DNA of 64,000 nucleotides from contig KN832891.1 in assembly GCA_000827325.1 (NCBI GenBank), positions 496,001 to 560,000 of the forward strand, written 5' to 3'. A program made the translations under genes and the position numbers. Under the pieces are notes generated by a model, which did no database searches, had not been told where the DNA came from, and saw nothing but the letters and a program-made list of their open reading frames with translations. Below, in pieces: positions 21,512 through 28,151 of the stretch. Within the stretch, counting starts at the first letter, position 1; every line of letters starts with the position of its first letter. The DNA comes from Oidiodendron maius Zn (taxonomy: Eukaryota; Ascomycota; Leotiomycetes; Myxotrichaceae).

Positions 21512-22022
21512 TTATTTTTCTTCATTCTCACATTGTGACTGCAGGCGTGGGAACAGCTTCAGTGCGTTCTTCCAGGCAAAGTTTTCCTTTTCGTCTTGGC
21601 TTAGTTCCGCAATATTCTGGCTGTCAGCAAAGTACTTGATACTTGCCGTTGGCGGAAGGGGGAAATCACTACCAAAAAGGATTCGGTCCGGCTTAGCGAA
21701 CTGGCGGAGAAGAGAGAGGGCAAATTGACCATCCGTCAGGGCAGTATCAATGTAGAATGTGCGTGCACACTCGAGAAATTCGCCTCTAGTCAAGCTACTG
21801 AGCTTCATATCTGCGAGAATCACCGCAGGACGTGCGGCAAGGTAGGGGAGGCAGCCTCCACCGCAAGGCAAGATGACTTTGCAGTTCGGATACTTGCGGA
21901 TGGTGTCAGTCATAATCAAGTCTATGGCTGCCCGGGTGGTATCATATTCGCGTATTGGGTGAACAAAGACCACTGCATGGCGGCGGTTCAACTCCTCCCA
22001 GATCAGCTGCAAGTTTCGATGG
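21512..22022 (-). pseudogene. Amidohydrolase (ACMSD-like), 3' portion, split by nested elements
   Basis: This is the C-terminal 170 codons of an amidohydrolase-2 family protein (the family of aminocarboxymuconate-semialdehyde and related aromatic-acid decarboxylases). It shows AVVFVHP (metal or catalytic His), KVILPCGGGCLPYLAAR and RILFGSDFPLP (the catalytic Asp). The minus-strand frame runs back to 22022 and there meets the 8-bp target duplication CCTAAGTC (22023-22030) of an inserted MITE. The N-terminal part of the same gene is at 27685-28151, 5.6 kb away. Taking out the insertion with one duplication copy puts both parts in one frame, GDHDLGHRNLQL, and gives a 305-residue protein of normal length. 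Apart from the insertion the coding sequence appears undamaged, so disruption may be recent. Confidence 0.88.
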
Positions 22023-22040
22023 CCTAAGTCGGGTACGCTT

Positions 22041-22288
22041 TGTCAGAGTTTGCTTATATAATTGATACCCAATCCGGTGGATTGAAGCCCAACCCTAGAA
22101 GCATATAAACCCCTAAGCCAGAGGGTTATATCCTTAATTAATTGAAGCACTTACACACCCTTTACAGCCCTATTTACATGCCCTTTTACGGTTCATTGTT
22201 CTGCCAGTATAACCTATAGAGGATATTACCGATACATTGTAGTTGTAGCTGTATTAAGTTTAGCGCTGCATTGCTTGTAAACCTGACA
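22041..22288 (+). repeat. 5' LTR of Copia-2
   Basis: A 248-bp repeat beginning TGTCAGAGTTTGC and ending AACCTGACA, matching 27032-27279 except for about six transitions. Confidence 0.93.
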
Positions 22289-25200
22289 GGTTATAAGCCC
22301 GGCTCTTTAATATGGCTTCAACTACAACCCCTCTTACGGATAGCAACTAGTATTACGCTTCGAAATACGGTTGCATCGCCATATTTATAGGTAATAACTA
22401 TACAGCCTTTACAACAACCTGCTATACTGCCCTAGTAGTAGTAGGAGCCTGGTCTATCGTTGATGGCACTGAAATTAGACCTGCTGGTGCTGGTGTAGGG
22501 CGCCGAGACTGGGATAATCGCAATTGAAAGGCTATACAGCTGATCAGCAGCTTAGTCAGCGCACCGTTCCAGCCTTGTATTACGGATAGTATTAATAAGG
22601 AGGACGCTAATATAATATAGGCTAAACTAACTAAGGAGGATCGAGCTACAAGCAGGGTATACCAGGCTAATCTATATTCTCAATTCAACCAAGCTACTTG
22701 GAACCCTTAAACCAAATCAATTTAAACCTTTTAAGCTTGACTAGAAGAGTTTAGAGCTTAATTAGTTAATATAGAGTATATAATCAATAAGAATGATATA
22801 ATATAGAGGATAATATCTGTAATCCCGGATAAAGGAGACTAGAGGTAAGCCAGATAGTTCTGCTTATAAGACAATTTAGACCTTATAGCTATTATTATAA
22901 CCCTATAATCTTATAAAAAACCTGTTACAGGTACTCTAGGATTGGCTGTAGCTGGAGCTATAGCTGCTCTAGTTAATTCAGGGCTGAATTCTGGATCCTA
23001 GTGTCCTATAGGCTATAATAATACAAGAGGTAGCTATAGAGGATCTATAAGAGGCTACAGGTATAGCTATAGAAGAGGAATACAAAAGGGTAGAAGAGGA
23101 GGTCATTTATAAGGCAACAAGGATACCTGCTTCTTCTATAATAAGCAGGGATATCTATAATACAATTGCTTCAAATACAAGAAGGTAAAAGAGGCTCTTA
23201 ATAACCAGGGAGAAGAGTATATAAATACAGTTTCTTATATCTCTTATTTTAATTAAACAGAGCTAGATTGTTCCCTCTATCCAACTAACAATAAATATAC
23301 CTGTATAACCAACTCAAATAAATCCTGGGTAGTGGATTCAGGTACAATGCATTATTTTAGTGGATTTATAGATGATTTTATAGCCCTGAAGCGATAGGCA
23401 ACCTTATAGATAGTAAGGACAGCAGATAATACAGTATTTAAGGCTCTTGGTTTAGGAGATATTAAGCTATAGACAACCTATAGGCTATATATCCTATAGA
23501 ATATATAGTTTATACTAGAATTCAGCTACTGGCTAGTCTCAACTATAATGCTTAATGATAAGGGTATTATAGTAACCTTTAAGAACTGTAATTTATAAGT
23601 AATTTATAGATCAAATATAGTATTCTTAGGCTCTAGGAAGCTAGGACTATATTATATTGATTTATAGACTGATTCAGTAATAGCAACAACCTTAATACTA
23701 TTATCTATAGATATAGGCTCTAGAATCCTGCCTGTAATACAGTTACTATAAGAGCTTTAGTATAATCGTTTTAGTTATCTGAATTATCAGACTATAGAAA
23801 AGATACCAGAGTATATAGATAGGATATCCTTCTATAAATTAACTATAGCAGATTAAATTGCAGGTGATATAGTATATAAAAGCTGTTTAGCTAGCTATAT
23901 AAAGGAATCCTTTAATAAGAAGACTGATACTTACGCTATAGGTAAGCTAGTGCAATTATACTATAATATATCTGGAATATAGGATAAGAGTATTTAAGGA
24001 TATCAATACTTCTTACTGGTTATAGATAATATAACTAGGTATATCTAGATCTATTACCTTAAAAGCAAATCTATATAGGACTATATCCCTATCTTTAAGT
24101 AACTAGTCAATAAATTAGAATATAAAACCAGCTATAATATAGTATATATATAGGCTAATAATAGTAAAGGAGAGTTTGGATCTAAATTTCAAGGCTATCT
24201 AAACAATAAGTATATTATATTTAAGCTGTCCCTAGTATACAAACACTCCCTGAATGGAGTGATTGAAAGGGCTATAGCAGTAGTTAACAAGATAGCCAGG
24301 TTGATCCTATATAGGGCAAAGGCTCCCTTATAGCTCTAGTGCCTTATAATAGAGTATACAGTCTATTTGAAGAATCAACTACTGATAACTGCTCTTCCCT
24401 AGAGTAACTCTATAGATATATATATACTACTATAGGCGTTTACTAGCCTGAAGCTGAATCTAAGCGTCTTATAGACCTGGGGATATATAGTATACCCTCT
24501 AAATTCGCTTAAATAGATACCTAGGAAGTAGAATCCTAGAATATAAGGAGAGTATATATTTATTAGCCTAAAAGGCAATAAGATCTAGAGGTTCTTGAAT
24601 CTAGAGACCCTAAAAGAAGAGGTCTCTATAAACGTTAAATTCTATAAGTTCAAGTTCCCTATTATAGCTGAAGATACTAATGGTTGACTATTATCTAGGA
24701 AGCCTATACTAGTACCTACAGATACCCTATAGCTGCTAGAGCTTAGAATAGGAGTGTCTAGAGCTAATTTATAGCTGCTAGAGTATCCTACTAATATATC
24801 TAGGACTGATTTACAGACAAAAGCTGCTATTATAGACTGTATCTTATCTGAGAAGCAGATTCAAGAGGCTTAGACTCCTGGAAACAGTATAAGTGCTAAG
24901 TATTCTGGCTATAATCTACCTGTATAAAAGACAGTTAGGTTTATAGAGGCAGATAGTATAAGAGATAAGGCTGTTAAGCCTATATATAGTAGTAGAGGAG
25001 CTTTACCTGTATCTAGAGTCAGTAGTAAAGCTATAAAAGCGTTTCCTGATCTCTCTAGTAGAGGTGTTTTATCTACCCCTTCTTATAATAGGGAGTTATA
25101 GACTAAAGGTCTGAACTTAGCAGCTATCTTTAAGCAAACATAGTCTAGCAGGGTACCTAAACTGACTGTTTTTACTGAATCTATAGCACAGCTTGTTATA

Positions 25201-27031: not shown

Positions 27032-27279
27032 TGTCAGAGTTTGCTTATATAATTGATACCCAATCCAGTGGATTGAAGCCCAACCCTAGAAGCATATAAA
27101 CCCCTAAGCCAGAGGGTTATATCCTTAATTAATTGAAGCACTTATACACCCTTTACAGCCCTATTTACATGCCCTTTTACGGTTCATTGTTCTGCCAGTA
27201 TAACCTGTAGAGGATATTACCGATACGTTGTAGTTGTAGCCGTATTAAGTTTAGCGCTGCATTGCTCGTAAACCTGACA
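27032..27279 (+). repeat. 3' LTR of Copia-2
   Basis: The partner of 22041-22288, preceded by a polypurine tract and followed by target duplication CGCTT. Confidence 0.93.
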
Positions 27280-27684
27280 CGCTTAAACCGGCATCATAGG
27301 CAACAAGGCAACAACGCTAGAGGACAAAACATATAGTAAATCTGCCCTTGCCGCTTTTATTTGCTTAACTCGCTAAATAAATAACTTAGCGAATTTCAAG
27401 GACTCTAGAAATTCTCTATATTATAATATAATAAAAAATAGCAAATTTATTAATTTAAAATAACCTTTAGAATTAGTTTATTTCTAATTTTAAAATCTAA
27501 TTCTTTTAATCTAAATTTAATTAAGTTAAGTAAAGGCCTTTAAAGATATATTATAAGGAAAAGAAGGGGATTTTCTCGCTTAATAAAGTGGCAAGACTTG
27601 GCAATAATTTTCGCTTAGTTCACTAGATATAGTAATATTTAGCGTTATTGCCTTGTTGCCTATGATGCCGATTTAAGCGTACCC
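27280..27684. mobile_element. MITE with 44-bp terminal inverted repeats and 8-bp target duplication
   Basis: The body of a non-autonomous DNA transposon of about 410 bp. Its left 10 bp (GGGTACGCTT, 22031-22040) are separated from the rest by Copia-2. The left end reads GGGTACGCTTAAACCGGCAT and onward; the right end at 27641-27684 is its reverse complement over 44 bp with two mismatches. The host sequence CCTAAGTC is present on both sides (22023-22030 and 27685-27692), an 8-bp target duplication, which points to the hAT superfamily. The interior is A/T-rich and has no coding capacity. It was inserted first, in the amidohydrolase coding sequence, and Copia-2 landed in it later. Confidence 0.85.
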
Positions 27685-28151
27685 CCTAAGTCGTGATCCC
27701 CTTCTCCGTAAAATGGCCATAGTGCAACTCCATCCGCCTTGCATTCATCCAAAGCATAGCGGATCTCTTGGATAGCCAGCTCAGTATTAATGAGATCGGG
27801 CAGTGTTGCGAAGAATCCATATTGCTGGGGCTGTGCATCTCGGATTGATTTGCCGTACTCATTACACTGTCTTGCCAGACGGGCACCTTCCGCTCCTTTA
27901 AATACCACTCCACCAAATGGAATCACTGATAAGATGCTGGTTGCAATTCCAAGGTTCTGGCACATCTTGCGATCGTTCTCTGGGGACCAGGCCGAGGCTT
28001 GCCATCCTAAAGGAACACGGCCAGCCTTGTCCAAGGCTATCAAGCAGTCATCAGCAATGTTCGAGATTAGATTAGAGAGAAGTCATCCACTTGTACCTTC
28101 CAAAACAGCTGGAGGGATGAAGTGGTGATGGACATCAATGCGGCCTGCCAT
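27685..28151 (-). pseudogene. Amidohydrolase (ACMSD-like), 5' portion with start and intron 1
   Basis: The N-terminal part of the gene whose end is at 21512-22022. Exon 1 (28151-28097) gives MAGRIDVHHHFIPPAVLE, with the metal-binding HxH near the N-terminus that defines amidohydrolases. A 60-nt intron (28096-28037, GTACAAG...GATAG) follows. Exon 2 (28036-27685) gives GWQASAWSPE, GIATSILSVIPFGG, ARQCNEYGKSIRD and ends GEGDHDLG at the MITE. Exons 55, 352 and 511 nt add to 918 nt, exactly 306 codons. The predicted reaction is a hydrolysis or non-oxidative decarboxylation of a small acid; the substrate is unknown. Its start faces the ThDP decarboxylase gene across an 847-bp shared promoter. Confidence 0.88.

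What the first reader, a model, noticed from the sequence alone, without database searches (positions are those of the whole stretch)
21512..28151. Nested insertions: Copia-2 inside a MITE inside an amidohydrolase gene
Two halves of one minus-strand amidohydrolase lie 5.6 kb apart. The join is flanked by CCTAAGTC on both sides, which is the duplication of a MITE, and the MITE is itself interrupted by Copia-2 with its own duplication CGCTT. Removing both insertions gives exons of 55, 352 and 511 nt that sum to exactly 306 codons. The insertions therefore have a readable order (gene, then MITE, then LTR element), and the host gene shows no other damage, so the loss may be recent and polymorphic.
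Basis: partly seen in the sequence, partly recalled or inferred. Interest (0 to 1): 0.75.

Follow-up and report, generated by a model that had tools for sequence, protein, structure and literature searches.

The report
Gene split by two nested transposons
In a mould's genome a decarboxylase-like gene is split by a small DNA transposon that was later hit by a retrotransposon; the duplication scars show the order, but the gene's lineage had already lost a key catalytic residue, so this looks like an ordinary, well-readable gene loss.

Summary
A minus-strand amidohydrolase-2 gene (exons 55, 352 and 511 nt; 306 codons with the stop) is cut by a 410-bp inverted-repeat element with an exact 8-bp duplication. 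That element is cut by a 5,239-bp Copia-type element with an exact 5-bp duplication. An uninterrupted relative (P0002, 95-97% identical to the parts) runs through the junction, so the order gene, MITE, Copia is secure. The Copia insertion looks young: the window copy has no private transversion against eight other full copies; the differences are RIP-type transitions.

"No other damage" holds for the reading frame only: the window gene, P0002 and P0003 all lack an 18-residue segment and carry Cys or Asn where 167 of 170 database hits have the catalytic His, so this preceded the insertions. P0003 also lost a metal ligand and seems frameshifted at its end, so the gene looks dispensable. Polymorphism within the species could not be tested.

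Side result: RIP in nine Copia copies declines towards both ends and mostly spares the LTRs. The mechanism is ordinary; interest is moderate to low.

The parts
28097..28151 (-). exon 1 of the amidohydrolase-2 gene (55 nt; start codon and DVHHH motif)
   Evidence: 13 of 18 residues identical to P0006, counted by eye
28037..28096 (-). intron, 60 nt, GT..AG
27685..28036 (-). exon 2 (352 nt), ending with one copy of the 8-bp duplication
   Evidence: 96.8% identical to P0002 over 93 residues
27685..27692 (.). right copy of the MITE target-site duplication CCTAAGTC
27285..27684 (.). MITE, right 400 nt, ending in the inverted tip AAGCGTACCC; terminal repeats about 45 nt, 43 of 45 identical
27280..27284 (.). 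right copy of the Copia target-site duplication CGCTT
27032..27279 (+). Copia 3' LTR (248 nt, TGTCAG..CTGACA)
22289..27031 (+). Copia internal region, 4,743 nt, RIP-mutated (80 stops in the + frame with fewest); 2 of 6 stop-free pieces match the Copia-type reverse transcriptase RVT_2 below Pfam's cut-off
22041..22288 (+). Copia 5' LTR (248 nt)
22036..22040 (.). left copy of the Copia duplication CGCTT, inside the MITE tip
22031..22040 (.). MITE left tip GGGTACGCTT, cut off from the rest of the MITE by the Copia element
22023..22030 (.). left copy of the MITE duplication CCTAAGTC
21512..22022 (-). exon 3 (511 nt with stop); has PCGGG in place of the family's SHAGG/SHGGG and lacks 18 residues after FVHP
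   Evidence: with the adjacent duplication it is 94.8% identical to P0002 over 172 residues; Pfam Amidohydro_2

Best explanation
A single-copy, apparently dispensable amidohydrolase-2 / 6-methylsalicylate-decarboxylase-type gene was split in two steps; its lineage had already lost the catalytic His and an 18-residue segment. First a 410-bp non-autonomous terminal-inverted-repeat transposon inserted into the second coding exon and duplicated 8 bp of the gene. Later a Copia-type LTR retrotransposon inserted into the MITE's left terminal repeat and duplicated 5 bp. Repeat-induced point mutation (RIP) hit the Copia body hard and its LTRs lightly. The insertions together add 5,662 bp and end the reading frame just past exon 2. 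Shown: structure, both duplications, continuity in a relative, absence of a close second copy in this genome, the RIP pattern, the missing His in relatives. Inferred: null allele, dispensability and recency.
For: Exact duplications and tips. The MITE terminal repeats pair over about 45 nt (43 of 45) once the Copia is skipped. One other MITE copy has an exact 8-bp duplication. 9 of 9 full-length Copia copies have exact 5-bp duplications and TG..CA ends. Exon 2 matches P0002 residues 1-93 and exon 3 residues 92-263, continuous across the junction. Best long match elsewhere in the own genome is 45% (one 38-residue stretch has 50%). Window vs L037: 577 transitions, 0 transversions over the 4.7-kb body, at CpA and CpG (0.58 each), hardly at CpC or CpT (0.04, 0.02). 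The window copy has 0 private transversions, and its 6 LTR differences are all at CpA or CpG. His position: H in 167 of 170 hits held, C in P0002, N in P0003, gap in the fragment P0283. Segment after FVHP: 5 residues in P0002 and P0003, 21-30 in 167, none in P0283.
Against: No transcript, further strain or empty-site DNA could be read, so loss of function and recency are inferred. P0002 has an open frame and differs little from the window gene (5 window-branch, 2 P0002-branch and 2 unresolved amino-acid changes), so the relative's protein may still do something. That the MITE hit a working gene cannot be shown. Absence of stops in 918 coding nt is a weak clock. P0003's damage rests on one 1.4-kb metagenome contig and could be a sequencing error.
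Confidence: 0.9

Rival explanations
1. The gene was a working enzyme until the MITE hit it: the Cys/Asn-for-His lineage is a repurposed enzyme (for example a tautomerase or another lyase), and the insertion is a recent, possibly segregating loss.
For: All three exons are open. P0002 is open over 263 residues and is modelled with high confidence (pLDDT 92.7), nearest solved structures 2f6k and human ACMSD; P0002 as called lacks the N-terminal part. In ACMSD the H228A mutant loses decarboxylation (kcat down 142-fold) but keeps oxaloacetate tautomerisation (PMC11650718, passages).
Against: P0003 carries a different residue at the same place, a lost metal ligand (GSGFP for GSDFP, 1 of 170 hits) and an end that looks frameshifted, which is more like decay than a fixed new function.
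Confidence: 0.25
2. The lineage was already a drifting remnant with a still open frame, and both insertions are neutral.
For: The catalytic His and an 18-residue segment are lost in all three known members. P0003 seems broken independently. The window branch shows 5 amino-acid changes against 2 on the P0002 branch.
Against: 95-97% identity to P0002 with open frames in two lineages; 5 against 2 is too few to show an excess.
Confidence: 0.45
3. The two parts are two separate genes, or the insertion is a large intron.
For: Both parts are open, and the exon 2 frame runs on to a stop inside the MITE.
Against: The parts align end to end, overlapping only in the duplicated residues, to P0002 and to homologues of about 50% identity. 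The ends are transposon tips with duplications.
Confidence: 0.01
4. An assembly artefact joined unrelated stretches here.
For: No reads were available.
Against: Exact duplications at both levels, and a 4,991-nt LTR-to-LTR spacing shared with other copies.
Confidence: 0.01

Closest known systems
Nested transposon insertions in RIP-competent ascomycetes (e.g. Mycosphaerella graminicola, PMC4522978, seen only in search listings)
   Same: A DNA element hit by an LTR element with readable duplications and RIP of the repeat; that this is common in such genomes is recalled.
   Different: Here the host is a coding exon with an uninterrupted relative at 95-97%, so the whole order is fixed.
RIP with dual CpA/CpG target, as in MATE repeats of Aspergillus nidulans (PMC2621366, passages) and in A. 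niger / A. fumigatus (PMC4352252, passages)
   Same: C-to-T change at CpA and CpG, hardly at CpC or CpT.
   Different: Here the load falls towards the ends of the element. [quoted passage not shown]
ACMSD / 6-methylsalicylate decarboxylase branch of amidohydrolase-2 (PF04909)
   Same: Domain, fold of the relative P0002, DVHHH, FVHP and GSDFP motifs.
   Different: No catalytic His (H224 of human ACMSD, H218 of 2dvt by alignment) and 18 residues shorter.

Membership tests
MITE / non-autonomous TIR transposon | terminal inverted repeats | tested here: met
   43 of 45 nt identical after skipping the Copia; perfect 10-nt tips
MITE / non-autonomous TIR transposon | target-site duplication of constant length in independent copies | tested here: met
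   8 bp here and 8 bp CACAAATC in L046; no exact one in the rearranged copy L045; L047 has one end only
MITE / non-autonomous TIR transposon | many copies in the genome | tested here: inconclusive
   three further places with the body or an end; nine further places with a tip-like match at up to 2 or 1 mismatches; looser matches are at the level of the reversed-pattern control
hAT superfamily (suggested by the 8-bp duplication, recalled) | an autonomous relative with the same tips and a hAT transposase | tested here: inconclusive
   21 places with the hAT dimerisation domain, none within 60 kb of the better tip matches; three open pieces (216, 90 and 81 aa) of the two C10 tip regions have no Pfam match
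Copia (Ty1/copia) LTR retrotransposon | two LTRs starting TG and ending CA, 5-bp duplication | tested here: met
   9 of 9 copies
Copia (Ty1/copia) LTR retrotransposon | Copia-type reverse transcriptase | tested here: met
   RVT_2 E 8.7e-5 and 3e-5 in 2 of 6 stop-free pieces, both below Pfam's gathering score
Copia (Ty1/copia) LTR retrotransposon | integrase upstream of reverse transcriptase | tested here: inconclusive
   no integrase match in the short pieces searched
Amidohydrolase-2 / ACMSD-type decarboxylase | PF04909 domain | tested here: met
   exon 3 E 1.1e-18; exon 2 alone gives no match
Amidohydrolase-2 / ACMSD-type decarboxylase | metal ligands HxH, H, D | tested here: met
   DVHHH in exon 1, FVHP and GSDFP in exon 3; which residues are ligands is recalled
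Amidohydrolase-2 / ACMSD-type decarboxylase | catalytic His (H228 of P. fluorescens ACMSD) | tested here: not met
   Cys in window and P0002, Asn in P0003; H in 167 of 170 hits held, gap in one fragment. It is a relative of the family, not shown to be a decarboxylase
RIP | C-to-T transitions in repeats, in dinucleotide context, on both strands | tested here: met

The most novel reading that the evidence does not exclude
The split gene belongs to a small fungal lineage of amidohydrolases in which the otherwise invariant catalytic His became Cys or Asn and 18 residues next to the FVHP motif were deleted, giving a protein with a different chemistry or a non-enzymatic role. That lineage is being lost repeatedly: by nested transposons here and by frameshift and metal-ligand loss in the P0003 lineage.
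Probability: 0.2. Interest if true: 0.45.

Novelty: new member of a known kind. Interest (0 to 1): 0.32.

Why it matters
The locus is a clean case in which the order of events can be read from scars and checked against an uninterrupted relative. It warns that an open reading frame in the flanks does not show that a gene was working when it was hit. The nine Copia copies suggest that LTR identity in this fungus reflects low RIP at element ends as well as age, and that transversions are the better clock.

Tried and rejected
Within-species polymorphism: searching exon 3 alone (66 proteins at E <= 1e-20 among 177 candidates) gave only P0002 and P0003 above 54% identity. No truncated twin and no identical intact allele was listed, so polymorphism stays untested. 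The neighbour search gave P0121, the window's own protein with 8 contigs; some may be other strains, but names are masked and no context can be read.

Autonomous MITE partner: pattern searches, hAT domain search, two further tip regions and Pfam on three of their open pieces gave none. RIP leakage into the gene: the RIP indices of the gene parts are not RIP-like (TA/AT 0.63 and 0.44), and four of the five window-branch amino-acid changes (N to D twice, L to M, F to I) cannot be single C:G-to-T:A changes by the genetic code. The MITE body is AT-rich (29% GC, TA/AT 1.24), so RIP there cannot be judged. Decay of the neighbouring pyruvate-decarboxylase-like gene: three pieces in two frames match in order, which introns can explain; no claim is made. 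A described decline of RIP towards element ends: searches and passages of PMC12543289 and PMC10787394 gave none; the one passage found on ends reports the opposite. This is no proof of absence from print. A search on 6-methylsalicylate decarboxylase papers found none holding all terms.
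Full report
What is there. The window is part of contig C22 of an unnamed 45.9-Mb, 58-contig genome; spliced genes, RIP and fungal gene families (for example HET and a fungal transcription-factor domain) point to a filamentous fungus. On the minus strand exon 1 (28151-28097, 55 nt), a 60-nt GT..AG intron, exon 2 (28036-27685, 352 nt) and exon 3 (22022-21512, 511 nt) make 918 nt, 306 codons with the stop. Between exons 2 and 3 lies foreign DNA. CCTAAGTC stands on both sides (22023-22030, 27685-27692), directly outside the perfect tips GGGTACGCTT and AAGCGTACCC. 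A third CCTAAGTC lies on the other strand at 6486, so the number of copies in the window is at chance level; the placement is what counts (about 1.3e-5 for a fixed place). The MITE is 410 nt when the Copia and one CGCTT are left out of the count (my arithmetic); its terminal repeats agree in 43 of the first 45 nt. The Copia (22041-27279) has 248-nt LTRs, TGTCAG..CTGACA, and CGCTT on both sides.

Is it one gene? Yes. Homologues align end to end across the two parts. The best test is P0002, a 263-residue protein from a 63-kb metagenome contig: exon 2 matches its residues 1-93 at 96.8% and exon 3 its residues 92-263 at 94.8%; the two-residue overlap is the duplicated DNA. A second relative, P0003, matches at 84% and 82%. 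In the own genome the best long match is 45%, with one 38-residue stretch at 50%, so no close intact copy was found there.

Order and age. The Copia lies inside the MITE's left terminal repeat and the MITE inside an exon, so the order gene, MITE, Copia follows from containment and the two nested duplications. The LTR search gave 41 matches, with only 40 of 103 candidates scored, so copy numbers are lower bounds. Nine full-length copies (window and L037-L044: the LTR pairs 4,981-4,994 nt apart in that list) were compared. All 9 have exact 5-bp duplications. Of the 20 LTR loci cut out, 11 have the internal region next to them and 9 do not. Internal regions differ by 5.5-16.6%, almost only by transitions: window vs L037, L041, L042 and L044 show 577, 470, 392 and 404 transitions and no transversion, vs L038, L039, L040 and L043 18, 7, 3 and 7 transversions. 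The window copy has 0 private transversions in its 4,743-nt body; by Poisson reasoning that means fewer than about 3 events, 6e-4 per site. Its 6 LTR differences are all transitions at CpA or CpG. So the Copia insertion is probably recent and its visible divergence is RIP. All nine copies have 20-110 stops in the + frame with fewest.

RIP pattern. Given a CpA in another copy, 23-57% are TpA in the window's body; CpG behaves like CpA (0.58 and 0.58 against L037), while CpC and CpT change in 2-7%. Dual CpA/CpG RIP is known from Aspergillus (passages of PMC2621366, and PMC4352252). More unusual is position: the mean share of CpA/CpG columns mutated rises from 0.09 (outermost 125 nt) through 0.16, 0.22, 0.31, 0.38 and 0.44 to 0.48 (1.5-2 kb from an end) and is 0.42 in the centre. 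In the window copy it is 10 of 90 in the LTRs and 648 of 1,052 in the body. All nine copies point the same way, the weakest (L043) at p = 0.04; L044, the most mutated, still has 29 of 90 in its LTRs. The outer 250 nt of the body, which solo LTRs do not carry, are also low (window 32 of 108 against 616 of 944), so repair from solo LTRs alone does not explain it. Sites are not independent, so the p-values are rough.

State of the gene before the insertion. In 53 homologues that I chose from the lists (P0002 first), the catalytic His position is H in 51, C in P0002 and N in P0003, and the stretch after FVHP is 5 residues in P0002 and P0003 and 22-24 in the other 51. Over all 170 amidohydrolase hits held (120 of 1,953 listed plus 50 new ones) it is H in 167; the exceptions are P0002, P0003 and the fragment P0283. 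The window gene has C and the same short stretch. By alignment the position is H224 of human ACMSD and H218 of 2dvt. In ACMSD, H228A lowers kcat of decarboxylation 142-fold while tautomerisation stays comparable (PMC11650718, passages). Thus the lineage lost this residue and 18 others before either insertion. P0003 further has GSGFP for GSDFP (the only G in 170) and ends in QTLPGGMH, which resembles the window's shifted frame KTLPGRTH-stop: a probable frameshift, unless it is an error of one short contig. With P0003 as reference the window branch has 5 and the P0002 branch 2 amino-acid changes, 2 unresolved, too few to show an excess. P0002's model (pLDDT 92.7) is most like 2f6k and human ACMSD, which suggests, but does not prove, that the fold tolerates the deletion.

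Mechanism and verdict. Cut-and-paste insertion of a non-autonomous TIR element into an exon, then integration of a retrotransposon into that element's terminal repeat, then RIP of the retrotransposon. Shown: structure, duplications, continuity, order, RIP. Inferred: null allele, dispensability, recency of the MITE step (intact frames and an exact duplication are weak clocks). The 8-bp duplication suggests a hAT-type transposase (recalled), but no autonomous partner was found.

Noticed in passing
window 22041-27279; L037-L044: RIP load in nine full-length Copia copies declines towards both ends (0.48 to 0.09 of CpA/CpG columns), mostly sparing the LTRs, so LTR identity misleads dating.
   Followed up: yes
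window 37919-49992: A 26-30% GC block with three related 300-nt repeats (37919, 43411, 49693; 88% and 78% identical to the first), perhaps further RIP-mutated LTR elements.
   Followed up: no
window 20673-21377 and about 29.0-30.7 kb: A cupin-like protein (itself without a Pfam match; relative P0134 has Cupin_2, PF07883; listed relatives 55-79%, the one organism named being an actinobacterium) and a pyruvate/indolepyruvate-decarboxylase-like gene flank the split gene, with an aldehyde dehydrogenase at 14.9 kb: perhaps a small catabolic cluster.
   Followed up: partly
L045 1740-2258: A MITE relative with perfect 121-nt inverted ends plus an inner third copy of part of the tip region, a rearranged form without an exact duplication.
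   Followed up: partly
L084 (C10:6967) and L085 (C10:13570): Two 48-nt stretches with the MITE tip, 96% identical, 6.6 kb apart in the same orientation near a contig end; no second tip was seen in the 2.3 and 1.9 kb read.
   Followed up: partly
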